DNA of 64,000 nt from Kitasatospora cineracea (GTDB taxonomy: Bacteria > Actinomycetota > Actinomycetes > Streptomycetales > Streptomycetaceae): positions 3,534,001 to 3,598,000 of the forward strand of contig NZ_RJVJ01000001.1 of NCBI RefSeq assembly GCF_003751605.1, in the 5' to 3' direction. The notes below the pieces were generated by a model. That model worked only from the letters and a program-made list of their open reading frames with translations. It searched no databases and was not told the DNA's origin. This document shows positions 39,319-44,890 of this stretch, in pieces. Every line of letters begins with the position of its first letter. Position 1 is the first letter of the stretch. The position numbers and the translations under genes were made by a program.

Positions 39319-40080
39319 GTGCGCTCCCGCCGTACCGCCGCAGTCGCCGTCCTGTTGCTCGCCCCGTTGGCCCTCGCCGGGTGCACCAGTGCGAAGAAGG
39401 GGCCGTCGGGCGGGGCGGGTTCCGGTTCCGGCTCCGGGGCGGTGTCGCAGGGCACGAACCCGCTGCAGAACCCGGACGGCACCAAGCCCGGCCTGGCGCC
39501 CGTCACCGCCGACGCCGACAAGAAGGCCGGACGCGACCTGATCGTCCAGGTCAGGACGGCCGACCCGGGCCCGAAGACCGGCTACGACCGGGACCAGTTC
39601 GGACCGGCCTGGACGGACAACGTGGACGGCGTGCCGATGGGGCACAACAACTGCGGGACCAGGGACGACGTGCTGGCCCGCGACGGCAAGGGCGTCGAGC
39701 GCAAGGACGGCTCCGCCTGCGTGGTCACCGCGATGACCATCTGGGACCCGTACACCGGCAAGACCGTGCAGTGGACCAAGCAGCAGCCGTCGAAGATCCA
39801 GATCGACCACGTGATGCCGCTGTCCTACGACTGGCAGCAGGGCGCCTCGCAGTGGGAGAAGGCCAAGCGGGTGCAGATCGCCAACGACCCGCTCAACCTG
39901 ATCCCCGCCGACGGCTCGCAGAACGCCTCCAAGGGCGACGCCGGCCCGGCGTCCTGGCTTCCCGCCAACACCGAGATCCGCTGCTCGTACGCGATCCGCT
40001 GGGCGCAGGTGTCGCTGAAGTACCAACTGCCGGTGACGCCCGCCGACAAGAAGACCATGCTCGCGCTGTGCGGCGGCTGA
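39319..40080 (+). CDS. Secreted lipoprotein HNH nuclease (DUF1524-like)
   Basis: 253 residues from GTG 39319 with GAGGA upstream. Lipoprotein signal peptide with lipobox LAGC (residues 19-22), Gly/Ser linker, then an HNH-type domain with KIQIDHVMPLSYDWQQGA, the NDPLNLI loop and NASKGDAGPASW. Family members are secreted DNases. Three further Cys residues could form disulfides outside the membrane. A nutritional or competition role is possible. Confidence 0.9.
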   Translation: MRSRRTAAVAVLLLAPLALAGCTSAKKGPSGGAGSGSGSGAVSQGTNPLQNPDGTKPGLAPVTADADKKAGRDLIVQVRTADPGPKTGYDRDQFGPAWTDNVDGVPMGHNNCGTRDDVLARDGKGVERKDGSACVVTAMTIWDPYTGKTVQWTKQQPSKIQIDHVMPLSYDWQQGASQWEKAKRVQIANDPLNLIPADGSQNASKGDAGPASWLPANTEIRCSYAIRWAQVSLKYQLPVTPADKKTMLALCGG

Positions 40081-40124
40081 GGCGAGGAGCCGGGCGCGCC
40101 CGGAACGGCTGGTATTACTAGGAC

Positions 40125-40202
40125 ATGCAGGAAGAGATTGCACGCTCCGCGATCGACACGTTCATCTCCGCGTTCAACGCCTCGGACGACAGCTACCTGG
40201 AC
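40125..40202 (+). pseudogene. SnoaL/NTF2-like gene, 5' fragment (26 codons)
   Basis: ATG 40125 encodes MQEEIARSAIDTFISAFNAS and continues to GAC at 40202. The following TAA (40203-40205) belongs to the inserted element. The reading frame continues without loss in the 3' fragment at 41923, giving a 127-residue NTF2-fold protein typical of SnoaL-like enzymes or proteins. The intact gene's substrate is unknown. Confidence 0.82.
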
Positions 40203-40215
40203 TAATTGCAGTGCG

Positions 40216-40231
40216 CCGGGCTTCGGTCCGG
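40216..40231. other. Left-end hairpin of the IS element
   Basis: CCGGGC-TTCG-GTCCGG, a 6-bp stem with one G-T pair and a TTCG tetraloop, 13 bp inside the left boundary. Subterminal hairpins of this size are TnpA recognition sites in IS200/IS605 elements. Confidence 0.5.
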
Positions 40232-40310
40232 TGGTGGAGCGGTTCTGGGCCCTGTTCTGACGTCGGTAGTGGGTGTCCTCCCGCGCTGTGGACGGTGTCC
40301 ACCGCGGGCG

Positions 40311-40600
40311 TCAGGTCGGGCGGTTCTGCTGCTCGATGTACTGGCGTACCACCGACAGGGGTGCGCCGCCGACGGAGCCGGCGAAGTACGAGCCGGACCA
40401 GAGCCGCTGTGCCCGCCAGTAGTGCTTGACCGGGGTGGCCTTGGGGGGCGAGCGGATGGATGCGGTCGCCCTCCCCGTTGGACTCGCAGGGTCGGCGCGG
40501 AGTCGGCGCGGATGCTCCGCGTGGTCTCTTCGAGCCGGCTCAGGTGGCGGTCGGCGGACATTTTGTGGCGGTATTCCGTCATGAAGGCCCAGTGTGTGGG
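40311..40600 (-). pseudogene. Decayed tnpA (IS200 Y1 transposase)
   Basis: The C-terminal 40 codons, ending at TGA 40311, read KHYWRAQRLWSGSYFAGSVG then GAPLSVVRQYIEQQNRPT, the conserved end of IS200-type TnpA. In a different frame upstream is an N-terminal remnant, HWAFMTEYRHKMSADRHLSR then LEETTRSIRAD. The middle, which should hold the HUH metal-binding motif, is deleted and the two parts are frameshifted. Catalytic activity is therefore lost. Divergent from tnpB as in IS605-type elements. Confidence 0.82.
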
Positions 40601-40663
40601 CGGGTGTCGACCGTTCGGGTCGTTGTGGCGTCCGGCCGTGGGTCGGGGGGCTACGGTGCGGTT

Positions 40664-41905
40664 GTGCAGCTCAGGTACTCCTTCCGCGTCTACCCGACGA
40701 CGGGTCAGCGGGCGGCGCTGGCGAGGGCGTTCGGGTGCGCGCGGGTGGTGTACAACGACGCTTTGCGTGCCCGGGAGGACGCCCGTTCGGCGGGGCTGCC
40801 GTTCCCGAAGGCGGGGGACCTGTCGAAGGCGCTGATCACCGGGGCGAAGAAGACCCCGGAACGCGCCTGGCTCGGCGAGGTGTCGGCCGTGGTGCTCCAG
40901 CAGTCCCTGCGGGACCTGGACGCCGCGTACCGGAACTTCTTCGACGGGCTGAAGGGCAGGCGTCCGCGCATGGGGGTGCCGCGGTTCAAGTCGCGCAAGG
41001 ACACCCGGCAGGTCGTGCGCTTCACCGCCAACGCCCGCTGGAGGATCACCCCGGGCGGGAAGCTGTCCCTGCCGAAGATCGGTGACCTGACGGTGAAGTG
41101 GTCGCGCACGCTGCCCTCGACGCCGTCCACGGTGACGGTGGTCAAGGACAGTGCGGGCCGGTACTTCGCAAGCTTCATCGTGGAGACCGACCCCGCCGCC
41201 GACCTGGCCCGCATGCCCGACACCGACCATGTGGTCGGCATCGACCTGGGGCTTGCGCACTTCGCGGTCCTGTCCGACGGCACGAAGACCGACAGCCCGC
41301 GTTTCCTGCGCCGCGCCGAGAAGAAGCTCAAGAAGGCCCAGCGCGCCCTGTCCCGCAAGGAGAAGGGGAGCAGGAACCGGGAGAAGGCCCGTTGCAAGGT
41401 CGCCCGTGCTCACGCGCAAGTGGCCGACGCGCGGCGTGAGTTCCACCACCGGCTCTCCACGAAGGTCGTCCGCGAGAACCAGGCGGTGGCCGTGGAGGCG
41501 CTGTCGGTGAAGGGGCTCGCGCGTACGCGCATGGCCAAGTCGGTGTACGACGCCGGGTGGTCGGCGTTCGTGGCCGTGCTGGAGTACAAGGCCGCGCGCT
41601 ACGGGCGGCGGTTCGTCCGGATCGGCCGCTTCGAGCCCACCAGCCAGGTGTGCTCGAACTGCGGCGTCAAGGACGGCCCCAAGCCCTTGCACGTCCGGAT
41701 GTGGACGTGTGGGGCGTGCGGGGCCGTCCTGGACCGGGACGTCAACGCGGCGGTCAACGTCGCCAAGGCCGCCGGACTGGCGGTGACAGCCTGTGGAGCG
41801 CAGGTCAGACGGACACCCGTGCCCGCACCGCGCAGCGAAGCAGGAACCCACCCGAAGCGACCCACACTGCCGGTGTGGGAGCAGGCGGGAATCCCTGGCC
41901 CCTAG
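40664..41905 (+). CDS. tnpB: TnpB RNA-guided nuclease (IS605 OrfB)
   Basis: 413 residues from GTG 40664, full length for TnpB. The N-terminal helical domain begins VQLRYSFRVYPTTGQRAALARAF. RuvC-like catalytic residues are intact: Asp in VVGIDLGLAHFAV, Glu in AVAVEALSVKGLART, and Asp in AVLDRDVNAAVNVAK. The zinc finger is CSNCGVKD...CGACG. TnpB cuts DNA next to a target motif using a right-end RNA guide and preserves element copies. The basic C-terminal tail runs to the right end. Confidence 0.95.
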   Translation: MQLRYSFRVYPTTGQRAALARAFGCARVVYNDALRAREDARSAGLPFPKAGDLSKALITGAKKTPERAWLGEVSAVVLQQSLRDLDAAYRNFFDGLKGRRPRMGVPRFKSRKDTRQVVRFTANARWRITPGGKLSLPKIGDLTVKWSRTLPSTPSTVTVVKDSAGRYFASFIVETDPAADLARMPDTDHVVGIDLGLAHFAVLSDGTKTDSPRFLRRAEKKLKKAQRALSRKEKGSRNREKARCKVARAHAQVADARREFHHRLSTKVVRENQAVAVEALSVKGLARTRMAKSVYDAGWSAFVAVLEYKAARYGRRFVRIGRFEPTSQVCSNCGVKDGPKPLHVRMWTCGACGAVLDRDVNAAVNVAKAAGLAVTACGAQVRRTPVPAPRSEAGTHPKRPTLPVWEQAGIPGP

Positions 41906-41922
41906 GCCAGGGAGGATGTCAA
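41770..41922 (+). ncRNA. Candidate right-end guide RNA (omega RNA) region
   Basis: In IS605-type elements a scaffold RNA is made from the 3' end of tnpB and the right end, with its guide read from the flank just outside. Here the right end contains a perfect hairpin CCCTGGCC-CCTA-GGCCAGGG (41893-41912) 10 bp before the boundary. The 5' limit given is approximate. The guide would begin at 41923 (GTGACGGCTCTGC). Expression is not shown by sequence. Confidence 0.4.
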
Positions 41923-42228
41923 GTGACGGCTCTGCTCTCCCGGGCCCTGACCTCGGACGTGGTCTTCTGGGGGCCGCTGGGACGCAGCGAGGGGATCGCG
42001 GCGGTCGAGCGGTTCGTGCTGGACATCCGGCACCACCCGGCGGGGACCGGCACGATGGCGCGCTGCTCGGAGGTGGACGTGCCCGACGAGTGGGCCCGGT
42101 ACCGGTGGGTCTTCGCCACGCCGGACGGGGGTCCCCGCCTGGTGGGGACGGACGTGGTCCATCTGCGCCGGAGCCTCATCGACCAGGTCGTCGTCTTCGC
42201 GGGGGAGATCGAACCGCTCGCCCCCTGA
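41923..42228 (+). pseudogene. SnoaL/NTF2-like gene, 3' fragment (101 codons)
   Basis: Continues the frame of the 40125 fragment with VTALLSRALTSDVVFWGPLG, then AAVERFVLDIRHHPAG, DEWARYRWVFATPDGG and a C-terminal GTDVVHLRRSLIDQVVVFAG, typical of SnoaL-like NTF2 domains. GTG 41923 could serve as a start but lacks a good ribosome site. The sequence itself shows no decay, so the insertion is likely recent. Confidence 0.82.
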
Positions 42229-42353: not shown

Positions 42354-44777
42354 TCAGAGGCCGGGGGACTTGGGCGCCGCGGTCAGGTCGTACAGGGTGG
42401 TGCTGCCGACGGTCTTGGCGGTGTAGGTGGACTCCACCCAGGAGGTGATCTCCGAGGAGTAGTTGGAGCCGCCCATGCTGCCGCCGCCCATGCCGCCCAT
42501 GCCGCCGCCGCCGATGAACCAGTGCACCTTGCCCTCCTTGACCAGCTGCTTGAAGCCGTCCAGGGAGAGCGACGGGTCGCTGCCGTTGAAGCCGCCCAGC
42601 GCCATCACCGGCTCGCCGCTGGCGAGTTGGTAGCTGGCCTGGTTCTGCGAGCCGACGGCGGCCGCGACCCAGGTGTACTGGCCGGCGTCCTGCTTGAGCA
42701 GGTCGGCCACCTCGGAGGAGACCCGGGCGCCGTTCAGCAGGCCGCCCATGCCGCCGCCGCCCATGCCGCCTCCCGTGCCGCCGAAGCCGCCGCGGCCGGT
42801 GCGGCCGTCCCGGCTCTCGCCGGTGCTGCCGGTGCCGGTGCCGCCGGGGAAGCCCGGGAAGGTGCCGGTGCTGCCGGTGCCGGTGCCGTTCCGGGTGCCG
42901 CCGGGGAAGTTCGGCATGCTGCCGCCGTTGGTGCTGCCGCCGGTGCCGCCGCCGGTGCCGCCGCCGGGGAAGCCCGGGAAGGTGCCGTTCTGGCCGCCGT
43001 TGCGGTTGCCGCCGGGGAAGCCGCCTCCGCCGCCCGGGAAGCCGCCCCGGCCGCCGAAGCCGCCGCTCTGGACGGCCGGTCCGGCGGTGACGATGGAGCC
43101 GCTGTGGCCGGTGGAGACGGTGTCGAGGGCGTACGCGGCCGGGCCGGCCAGGCCGGCGGCCAGTGCGGTGAGGCCCGCGACGGTGGCGATCCGGCGGCCG
43201 GGGCGGCCGGGGATGCGGCCGGCCAGCAGCAGGGCGATCGCGGCCAGGACGCCGCCGATCAGCACCGCGTTCCGCAGCCAGGGCACGAACTGCGAGCTGC
43301 GGCCCAGCAGTTGGTGCGCCCACCAGGCGGTGACGGCGACCGTGACGGCCAGCACGGCCGCGTACGGGAGGCGGTGGCGGGCCCGCCACAGGCCGTCGGC
43401 GCCCATGCCGACCAGGGCGGCGACCGCCGGGACGAGGGCCACCGTGTAGTACTGGTGGAAGATGCCGGACATGAAGCTGAAGGTCAGCGCGGTGGAGAGC
43501 AGCCAGCCGCCCCAGACCAGGAAGCCGATCCGGGCCGAGTCGGTGCGCGGGTGGCGGCGGGTCGCCCACAGGCCGAAGAGCAGCAGGATCAGCGCGGCGG
43601 GCATCAGCCAGGCGATCTGCCCGCCGATGTCGCCGTCGAACAGCCGGGTGATGCCGGTGGAACCCCACATGCCACCGCCACCGCCGCCCGTCCGGCCGCC
43701 ACCGCCGCCGCCGCCGACCGAGCCGGTCTCGTCGCCGGTGATCCGGCCGAAGCCGTTGTAGCCGAAGGTCAGCGAGAGGAAGGAGTTGTCCTGCGAGCCG
43801 CCGATGTACGGGCGGGCCGAGGCCGGCATCAGCTCGACGACCGCCACCCACCAGCCGCCGGCCGCCACCATCGCGAGGGTGCCGTACAGCAGTTGGAGGA
43901 AGCGCCGGCGCAGACCGGTGGGCGCGCAGACCAGGTAGACCAGGGCGAACGCGGGCAGCACCAGGAACGCCTGCAGGGTCTTGGTGAGGAAACCCAGGCC
44001 GAACATCACGCCGACGAACACCAGCCAGCGGGTGGAGGCCGTCTCGGTGGCCCGGACGGTGCCGTACGCGGCCAGGGTGAGCAGCAACACCAGCAGCGCG
44101 TCCGGGTTGTTGAAGCGGAACATCAGCGCCGCGACGGGGGTGAGCGCCAGCGCGGCGCCCGCGACCAGGCCGGCCAGCGGGGTGAAGCGGCGGCGCACCG
44201 TCGCGTACACGGTGGCGACCGTGCCGACGCCCATCAGCACCTGCGGGGCCAGCACGCTGAACGAGCTGAGGCCGAACAGGCGGGCGGAGAGCGCCATCGG
44301 CCACAGCGACAGCGGCGGCTTGTCGACGGTGATGAAGTTCGCCGAGTCCGAGGAGCCGAAGAACATCGCCTTCCAGCTGACCGAGCCGGCCTGCACGGCG
44401 GCCGAGTAGAAGGCGTTCGCCCAGCCGGAGGCGGTCAGGTTCCAGAAGTACAGGACGGCCGTCGCCAGCAGCAGGCCGAGGAACGCCGGACGCACCCAGC
44501 GCGGGTCGTCCTCGCGCCCCCGCCAGGTGCGGGCGGGCAGGGTGCGCAGCCGGCCGGCCCGGGAGGCCCGGCCCCCGGGGCCGGCGGGGGGCGGCGCGAC
44601 GGGCGGGAACAGCGTCTCAGCGGGCCGCTCGCGTTCGGCCCCGGCGGGCGGGAGCGGCGCCGCGTCGGGCCAGGCGGTCGGCCCGGCTGCGGCGTCGGCC
44701 GCGACCGCCGGTGGCGGGTAGTTCGCGGCCTCGGGCCACGGCTCGCTGGTCGGAGGAACGGAACTGGACGTGGTCAT
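42354..44777 (-). CDS. ArnT/PMT-like GT39 membrane glycosyltransferase
   Basis: 807 residues from ATG 44777. A Pro-rich cytoplasmic N-terminus (1-90), then about 11 TM segments with the GT39 lumenal loop GWANAFYSAAVQAGSVSWKAM, SANFITVDKPPLSLW (catalytic Asp region), MFRFNNPDALLVLLLT and QDNSFLSLTFGYNGFGRITG. Transfers sugars from polyprenyl-phosphate donors outside the membrane. Large glycine-rich inserts occur near residues 360-385 and 555-650 (GGRGGFPGGGGGFPGGNRNG type). A C-terminal alpha/beta domain ends the protein. Acceptor unknown; cell-wall polymer or lipid possible. Confidence 0.92.
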   Translation of the reverse strand: MTTSSSVPPTSEPWPEAANYPPPAVAADAAAGPTAWPDAAPLPPAGAERERPAETLFPPVAPPPAGPGGRASRAGRLRTLPARTWRGREDDPRWVRPAFLGLLLATAVLYFWNLTASGWANAFYSAAVQAGSVSWKAMFFGSSDSANFITVDKPPLSLWPMALSARLFGLSSFSVLAPQVLMGVGTVATVYATVRRRFTPLAGLVAGAALALTPVAALMFRFNNPDALLVLLLTLAAYGTVRATETASTRWLVFVGVMFGLGFLTKTLQAFLVLPAFALVYLVCAPTGLRRRFLQLLYGTLAMVAAGGWWVAVVELMPASARPYIGGSQDNSFLSLTFGYNGFGRITGDETGSVGGGGGGGRTGGGGGGMWGSTGITRLFDGDIGGQIAWLMPAALILLLFGLWATRRHPRTDSARIGFLVWGGWLLSTALTFSFMSGIFHQYYTVALVPAVAALVGMGADGLWRARHRLPYAAVLAVTVAVTAWWAHQLLGRSSQFVPWLRNAVLIGGVLAAIALLLAGRIPGRPGRRIATVAGLTALAAGLAGPAAYALDTVSTGHSGSIVTAGPAVQSGGFGGRGGFPGGGGGFPGGNRNGGQNGTFPGFPGGGTGGGTGGSTNGGSMPNFPGGTRNGTGTGSTGTFPGFPGGTGTGSTGESRDGRTGRGGFGGTGGGMGGGGMGGLLNGARVSSEVADLLKQDAGQYTWVAAAVGSQNQASYQLASGEPVMALGGFNGSDPSLSLDGFKQLVKEGKVHWFIGGGGMGGMGGGSMGGSNYSSEITSWVESTYTAKTVGSTTLYDLTAAPKSPGL

Positions 44778-44890
44778 GGGCAATACGCTCGGAGGCGAGG
44801 CTGAGAGGTTGATGAGAGGGGGCTATGAGGCCGCTCTAATCTCCGGGCGTCCGGGTGGACCTGCGCCGCCGCGCGCGCCCTGACGGTGCG

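What the first reader, a model, noticed from the sequence alone, without database searches (positions are those of the whole stretch)
40125..42228. Codon-exact IS605-family insertion in a SnoaL-like gene
Two fragments (26 and 101 codons) on either side of a 1720-bp IS200/IS605 element rejoin in frame when 40203-41922 is removed, with neither loss nor gain of a base. The stop after the 5' part is provided by the element's first three bases (TAA). The fragments show no decay, so the insertion looks recent and could revert by precise excision.
Basis: partly seen in the sequence, partly recalled or inferred. Interest (0 to 1): 0.62.

Follow-up and report, generated by a model that had tools for sequence, protein, structure and literature searches.

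The report
Nested jumping genes: IS605 inside cargo
A common type of jumping gene has landed inside a small gene that looks like the stranded cargo of a second kind of jumping gene, one that carries different single genes from copy to copy in soil actinobacteria and that I did not find described.

Summary
Related copies share the preceding GCTAC, and two other copies have empty sites ending exactly there. The element is therefore 40197-41922, 1726 bp, and splits a 125-codon gene into 24 + 101. TnpB looks intact. TnpA is a 35-residue remnant, the only Y1 transposase match in the genome, so precise excision now looks unlikely. The interrupted SnoaL_2-like gene is itself acquired: 11 of 11 close relatives read lack it there. 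Elsewhere it is cargo of an IS630-family element with CTAG ends; one copy sits in a CRISPR spacer, and removing it restores 32 nt exactly. Transposases about 94-95% identical carry unrelated single cargo genes (immunity proteins, acetyltransferases, hydrolase, phosphatase and others). My searches of an open-access library found no description of such an IS630 group. The window's own copy has no IS630 ends, so its route here is inferred.

The parts
40104..40124 (+). Last 21 nt of the conserved 5' flank of the SnoaL-like cargo gene (AACGGCTGGTATTACTAGGAC); the cargo element's terminal inverted repeat, normally about 85 nt before the ATG, is missing here
40125..40196 (+). SnoaL_2-like gene, codons 1-24
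   Evidence: homologue rows in register
40192..40196 (+). GCTAC: target site left of the IS605 element and predicted TnpB target-adjacent motif
   Evidence: shared by 7 of 8 related elements; empty sites 11 of 11 and 2 of 2 loci read
40197..41922 (+).
40203..40205 (+). TAA that ends the 5' gene part (24 gene codons + Leu-Asp + stop); element bases 7-9
40326..40430 (-). tnpA (Y1 transposase) remnant: C-terminal 35 residues; HUH region lost and upstream part frame-shifted
40664..41905 (+). tnpB, 413 aa, GTG start, aligned to the solved ISDra2 TnpB
41793..41922 (+). Right end / predicted omega-RNA scaffold ending in TCAA; terminal hairpin 41892-41913
   Evidence: 10-sequence alignment and fold, 11 of 31 pairs with compensatory change
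41923..41942 (+). Predicted omega-RNA guide; matches the re-formed empty site behind GCTAC
   Evidence: inference from anatomy and the ISDra2 model
41923..42228 (+). SnoaL_2-like gene, codons 25-125 and stop
39319..40080 (+). Neighbour gene (GmrSD_C/HNH); next to the mannosyltransferase in 10 of 11 relatives read, with about 0.6 kb of other DNA between them in G023
42354..44783 (-). Neighbour gene (PMT_2 mannosyltransferase)

Best explanation
This is a nested insertion. Step 1 (inferred from comparison): a SnoaL_2-like gene, elsewhere carried as cargo by IS630-family elements with ends CTAG-TGCTGTGACC...GGTCACAGCA-CTAG, entered the spacer between the HNH gene and the mannosyltransferase gene in this Kitasatospora-group lineage. 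It survives here as a solitary gene without its transposase or either end. Step 2 (shown by comparison): an IS200/IS605 element of 1726 bp (40197-41922) inserted 3' of GCTAC, after codon 24, with no loss or gain of bases, leaving 24 + 101 codons. Step 3 (inferred): its own TnpA is dead, so it may have been moved by a TnpA supplied in trans. Its intact-looking TnpB, with an omega-RNA whose guide is 41923-41942, would cut a re-formed GCTAC-GTGACGG... site and so favour keeping the element; with no Y1 transposase found in the genome it is probably fixed in place.
For: IS605 boundary: none of 109 homologue rows has Leu-Asp; shared GCTAC; empty sites of two other copies. TnpB: OrfB_IS605, Cas12f1-like_TNB and HTH_OrfB_IS605 above cut-off; aligns with ISDra2 TnpB 8bf8 over residues 6-373. 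Dead TnpA; full-length versions occur elsewhere in the genus. Cargo origin: an IS630 transposase (NF033545, 170.6 bits against cut-off 100) lies beside the gene in 6 copies of full extent, and the left inverted repeat (up to 3 mismatches) is seen in 74 of 109 rows. The gene is absent from this site in 11 of 11 close relatives read. A full-length SnoaL-carrying copy sits in a CRISPR spacer whose 61-nt period is restored exactly when it is taken out.
Against: The G000 copy of the SnoaL-like gene has neither inverted repeat nor transposase (no match near it), so its arrival by IS630 transposition rests on homology alone. SnoaL_2 is a sub-threshold Pfam match (23.5-24.4 bits against 27) and the AlphaFold model was poor. 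Activity of TnpB and the omega-RNA was not tested. The search for TnpA in the genome used one Pfam profile only. Many SnoaL copies have a decayed transposase, including the CRISPR one, whose transposase matched in three pieces.
Confidence: 0.87

Rival explanations
1. One reading: the element starts at 40203, and the gene of this lineage carried two extra codons (CTG GAC) before insertion.
For: The 127-codon join is in frame.
Against: None of 109 homologue rows has the two codons; related elements have GCTAC and then their own first letters at the same point; empty sites of other copies end at GCTAC.
Confidence: 0.03
2. The SnoaL-like gene is an ordinary chromosomal gene lost from relatives, and its presence in IS630 elements elsewhere is secondary capture.
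For: The G000 copy has no IS630 ends; the gene is under purifying selection (median dN/dS 0.13).
Against: 11 of 11 close relatives read lack it at this place; copies in other genomes sit in different neighbourhoods, with the left IS630 end in 74 of 109 rows.
Confidence: 0.1
3. The element reverts freely: TnpA from another IS605 copy or a plasmid excises it and restores the gene.
For: Both ends look intact; full-length TnpA occurs in other genomes of the genus.
Against: The only Y1_Tnp match in the 5-contig genome is the 35-residue remnant; TnpB is predicted to cut the empty site.
Confidence: 0.1

Closest known systems
ISDra2 (IS200/IS605 family) of Deinococcus radiodurans, TnpB 8bf8
   Same: tnpB of about 410 aa aligned over nearly its whole length, right end giving the guide RNA in ISDra2, insertion 3' of a pentanucleotide (TTGAT there; GCTAC here)
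   Different: tnpA here is a remnant; target/TAM GCTAC instead of TTGAT; TnpB activity untested
IS630 family of insertion sequences (NF033545)
   Same: Transposase of the SnoaL-carrying element passes the family cut-off; ends flanked by TA within CTAG
   Different: 15 of 21 genus loci and 7 of 8 plasmid loci examined carry an extra, variable stretch between the transposase and one inverted repeat
Transporter IS (tIS), IS derivatives with passenger genes (PMC9330008, passages seen)
   Same: One transposase gene plus a passenger between inverted repeats
   Different: Seen here for an IS630 group, with a different cargo gene in nearly every copy examined; I found no paper on such a group
SnoaL_2 / 'nuclear transport factor 2 family protein' (name on annotated plasmids)
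   Same: Weak SnoaL_2 match over most of the protein
   Different: Below the Pfam cut-off; encoded on a mobile element; function unknown

Membership tests
IS200/IS605 family | TnpB with RuvC-like and zinc-ribbon domains | tested here: met
   Pfam and NCBIfam guided_TnpB above cut-off; alignment to 8bf8. The more specific IS200_TnpB model scored 347.5, under its cut-off of 425
IS200/IS605 family | Y1 (HUH) TnpA | tested here: not met
   Only 35 residues left, HUH region lost; a relative of the element (L051) has full-length TnpA, so I read this as a decayed member; many family members lack tnpA (recalled)
IS200/IS605 family | Insertion 3' of a fixed short target, without target duplication | tested here: met
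   GCTAC, three sites with empty homologues
IS200/IS605 family | Structured ends | tested here: met
   Right end: 11 of 31 pairs with compensatory change. Left end seen by eye only
IS200/IS605 family | RNA-guided cleavage of the empty site by TnpB | not testable with these tools
   Needs a plasmid interference assay
IS630 family (the SnoaL-carrying element elsewhere) | IS630 DDE transposase | tested here: met
   NF033545 170.6 bits, cut-off 100; DDE_3 60.5 bits
IS630 family (the SnoaL-carrying element elsewhere) | Terminal inverted repeats and TA target duplication | tested here: met
   Ends of the 6 full SnoaL copies match at 23-26 of 32, of 15 other cargo elements at 24-32 of 32; exact empty sites 3 of 3 for one cargo element; CRISPR ruler for a SnoaL copy. 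TA and CTAG duplication cannot be told apart
IS630 family (the SnoaL-carrying element elsewhere) | The G000 copy of the gene has IS630 ends | tested here: not met
   No match to CTAGTGCTNTGACC (up to 3 mismatches) within 14 kb of it in the window; 5 matches elsewhere, fewer than the 9.9 expected by chance
SnoaL_2 (PF12680) | Score over the curated cut-off (27 bits) | tested here: not met
   17.9 bits for the C-terminal part; 23.5 and 24.4 for full-length homologues

The most novel reading that the evidence does not exclude
A group of IS630-family elements in actinobacteria works as a single-gene shuttle. One transposase type, a CTAG target and 32-bp ends move a different gene in almost every copy examined (NTF2/SnoaL-like, orphan immunity proteins Imm53 and MafI, GNAT acetyltransferases, alpha/beta hydrolase, histidine phosphatase, HD, PemK-like), with cargo exchanged faster than the transposase diverges. 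The gene interrupted in this window is a stranded cargo of that group, later hit by an IS605 element whose guide is aimed at the cargo sequence.
Probability: 0.6. Interest if true: 0.66.

Novelty: new variant of a known kind. Interest (0 to 1): 0.52.

Why it matters
The IS605 insertion itself is ordinary. Its host gene leads to a compact gene-moving route in antibiotic-producing actinobacteria that I did not find described: small transposons that carry one gene each. It offers a testable explanation for how orphan immunity and small-enzyme genes spread among these soil bacteria, and it raises the question of how an IS630 element swaps its cargo.

Tried and rejected
Rejected: the 40203 boundary. 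Rfam gave only a sub-threshold HgcC match (19 bits, cut-off 50) at the right end, taken as chance. Imm51 as a cargo of L279: the nearest right repeat lies before it, so that copy was counted as plain. The transposase tree was not used, because the script picked the longest open frame, which was the wrong one in several rows; identities were recomputed. The AlphaFold model of the SnoaL-like protein (mean pLDDT 52.7) was too poor for a fold search, and none was made.

Inconclusive: the empty site of a short, transposase-less SnoaL element (L143), 7 loci, flanks too diverged; the flank of G000's own IS630 copy (L218) had one match in another genome, which starts 103 nt from the junction; plasmid copy L269 has no right repeat and its left edge was not clean; L270's right-end match (14 of 32) and L271 gave no credible right repeat; L280, the relative of the CRISPR-array plasmid, gave no clean empty site for that spacer.

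Limits of the counts: the 109 SnoaL rows were found by looking for an intact SnoaL-like protein, so the excess of copies with a decayed transposase partly reflects the search. A 14-base pattern with 3 mismatches is met by chance about 10 times per 64 kb, so of the 35 right repeats, sought over some 1.8 kb each, a fair part may be chance; the left repeat was sought in 90 nt only. 'Complete' means extent, not an unbroken transposase. My own notebook entry says that 11 of 11 relatives have the two neighbour genes directly adjacent; it is 10 of 11.

Full report
What was claimed and what is there. A TnpB-bearing element lies between two open parts of a small gene. TnpB (413 aa, GTG at 40664) has OrfB_IS605, Cas12f1-like_TNB and HTH_OrfB_IS605 above cut-off and aligns along nearly its whole length with the solved ISDra2 TnpB, including the three acidic RuvC positions as I read the alignment (of these D191 is named in PMC8612924, passages seen, the other two are recalled).

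The left edge. The C-terminal part was found in 31 of 70 genomes of the genus, G000 included. Of the 31 matches outside G000, 29 were read. With 80 further loci from genome contigs (the best 80 of 262 relatives) this gives 109 rows, at least 10 of them the same locus seen twice. None has Leu-Asp before the valine of codon 25 (two rows are offset by one codon and are read). Eight related IS605 copies could be aligned at their extreme left end: the alignment begins at 40192 in six and at 40183-40184 in two, and GCTAC precedes the element in 7 of 8, GCTTC in one; the letters after it vary (CTGG, CAGG, CAGA, CGGA) but keep C and G at the first and third base. For two other copies the empty site could be read in relatives: L002 (same genome, 94% identical over 1394 bp) in 11 of 11 loci read, and L044 in 2 of 2, each ending exactly at GCTAC (only the best matches were read, out of 69 and 68 other genomes with some match). 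The element is therefore 40197-41922, 1726 bp, inserted 3' of GCTAC. In the homologues the five bases before the junction are GCTAT in at least 82 of 109 rows and GCTAC in two (one of them L036), so the target may have arisen by a silent TAT to TAC change in this lineage (inference).

Can it revert? The element's TnpA survives as 35 C-terminal residues (40326-40430, minus strand). Aligned with a full-length relative (L051) it shows several deletions, loss of the HUH region and frame changes; the second copy in the genome (L002) has lost nearly all of tnpA and shares a 12-nt gap in its N-terminal part. This remnant is the only Y1_Tnp match in the genome, while 29 of 70 genomes of the genus, G000 included, have some match, several full length. 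The right end folds into a structure with compensatory changes at 11 of 31 pairs across 10 copies. In the published model for ISDra2, TnpB cuts the re-formed donor joint next to the target motif and so helps to restore the element (PMC8612924, passages). If that holds here, GCTAC would be the motif and 41923-41942 the guide. Reversion by precise excision is therefore unlikely at present. Whether the insertion is recent cannot be dated from these data.

The interrupted gene looks like mobile cargo. In 11 of 11 close relatives read the SnoaL-like gene is absent between the HNH and mannosyltransferase genes: 10 have them adjacent and one (G023) has about 0.6 kb of other DNA. The homologues are 86-92% identical to the window part across Streptomyces, Kitasatospora, Actinomadura, Nonomuraea, Streptosporangium and Micromonospora, 90-99% to the first of 26 full-length proteins, and lie in different neighbourhoods. 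Upstream similarity among them typically ends about 85 nt before the ATG, at CTAG-TGCTGTGACC. In six copies of full extent (L153, L155, L169, L191, L196, L198) the gene is followed by a convergent transposase and then GGTCACAGCA-CTAG or a near match; the transposase frame is open over 398 aa in L169 and L196 but looks broken in L155. The transposase is IS630 family (NF033545 170.6 bits, cut-off 100; DDE_3). Of 109 rows, 74 show the left repeat (up to 3 mismatches in 90 nt), 35 the right one (up to 3 mismatches in 1.8 kb, so partly chance), 29 both, 8 more than 80% of the transposase and 6 are complete. The reading frame is regular in 108 of 109 rows and the median pairwise dN/dS is 0.13 (4503 pairs), which points to selection on the protein. 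On plasmids the gene was found in 21 of 72,556 records, named 'nuclear transport factor 2 family protein' in most of those with annotation; in 50,697 phage records there was no match. The window copy keeps only about 21 nt of the 5' flank and ends at the stop; no IS630 end lies near it.

A natural ruler. In the S. atratus plasmid NZ_CP108285.1 a full-length SnoaL-carrying element (its transposase matched in three pieces) sits inside a CRISPR array with 29-nt repeats and 61-nt period. The two repeats around it are 1797 nt apart; without the element (1736 nt, one TA kept) the distance is 61 and the spacer 32 nt. This shows insertion of the whole unit, gene included, with duplication of TA (or CTAG; the two cannot be told apart). 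In the related plasmid of strain NBC_00043 another element, with a gene named IS630 family transposase, has gone into the CTAG at its right end.

One transposase type, many cargoes. The IS630 transposase was sought in the genus at E <= 1e-20: 47 of 70 genomes matched, and 21 of the 30 loci made (L214-L234, the best per genome) were examined. Fifteen carry both repeats with 300-991 nt between transposase and right repeat. Four have only 41-42 nt there (L219, L222, L226, L229; L229 instead has its left repeat some 340 nt further out than usual). Two lack an assignable repeat (L224, L232). In L230, L233 and L234 part of the transposase is missing. The 32-bp ends match at 24-32 of 32 in the fifteen. 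One open frame per region, chosen by eye from the three longest, was run against Pfam: alpha/beta hydrolase, MDMPI_N, GNAT (two kinds), Imm53 (G000's own copy at C1:2974785-2975876), histidine phosphatase, HD, PemK-like; seven of fifteen had no match. Of eight annotated plasmid copies chosen among the best-scoring of 97 records, seven carry a stretch of 390-700 nt (methyltransferase, MDMPI, GNAT twice, MafI immunity protein, one hypothetical, one unannotated) with ends matching at 26-31 of 32, and one is plain. For the phosphatase-carrying copy the empty site is exact in 3 of 3 relatives. In G050 three copies of 1497 bp are 100% identical with unrelated flanks. Among 34 transposases the nearest relative carries a different cargo label in 29 cases and the same in 5 (labels set by hand, each unknown counting as different). 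The closest pairs with unlike annotated cargo are hydrolase/GNAT 95.0% (one of them truncated), methyltransferase/MDMPI 94.8% and SnoaL/MDMPI 94.2%; three of the six SnoaL copies are nearest to each other, three are nearest to elements with other cargo. Cargo thus seems to change faster than the transposase.

Literature. Searches for IS630 with passenger, cargo, SnoaL, CTAG, Streptomyces and actinobacteria terms listed no paper that by title or abstract treats an IS630 group with variable cargo. I read passages of PMC9330008 (defines transporter IS), PMC11092175 and PMC7371123 (no IS630 cargo in the passages) and PMC8612924; the rest were seen as listings only. The library is open-access only and ISfinder was not available, so novelty is provisional.

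Verdict. The reported IS605 insertion is a real but ordinary, partly decayed member of a known family, with the boundary corrected by 6 bp. The more interesting fact is that its host gene looks like stranded cargo of an IS630-type gene shuttle.

Noticed in passing
L218 (G000:C1:2974785-2975876 and flanks): The window's own genome has a full-length IS630 element with an Imm53 immunity-protein gene as cargo, ends matching 27 of 32.
   Followed up: partly
L268 2746-5303 and L284 (S. atratus plasmids): SnoaL-carrying IS630 element inside a CRISPR spacer; in L284 a second transposase element sits at its right-hand CTAG.
   Followed up: yes
L259 (G061:C1:1374500-1379500): An IS630 element lies in the centre of a palindrome around CTAG (TTGCGGCGCATCACA-CTAG-TGTGATGCGCCGCAA).
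   Followed up: no
L018/L143, L016/L141, L134, L035, L037 and others: Short SnoaL-carrying elements with both ends (up to 3 mismatches) but no transposase, like miniature elements that keep only the cargo gene.
   Followed up: partly
left flanks: Several IS630 insertions appear to sit at a CTAG that could be a TAG stop codon of an upstream gene (seen by eye).
   Followed up: no
window 41910-41925: The IS605 right end (GGGAGGATGTCAA) puts a Shine-Dalgarno-like GGGAGG 7 nt before GTG, codon 25; re-initiation of the 101-codon part is conceivable.
   Followed up: no
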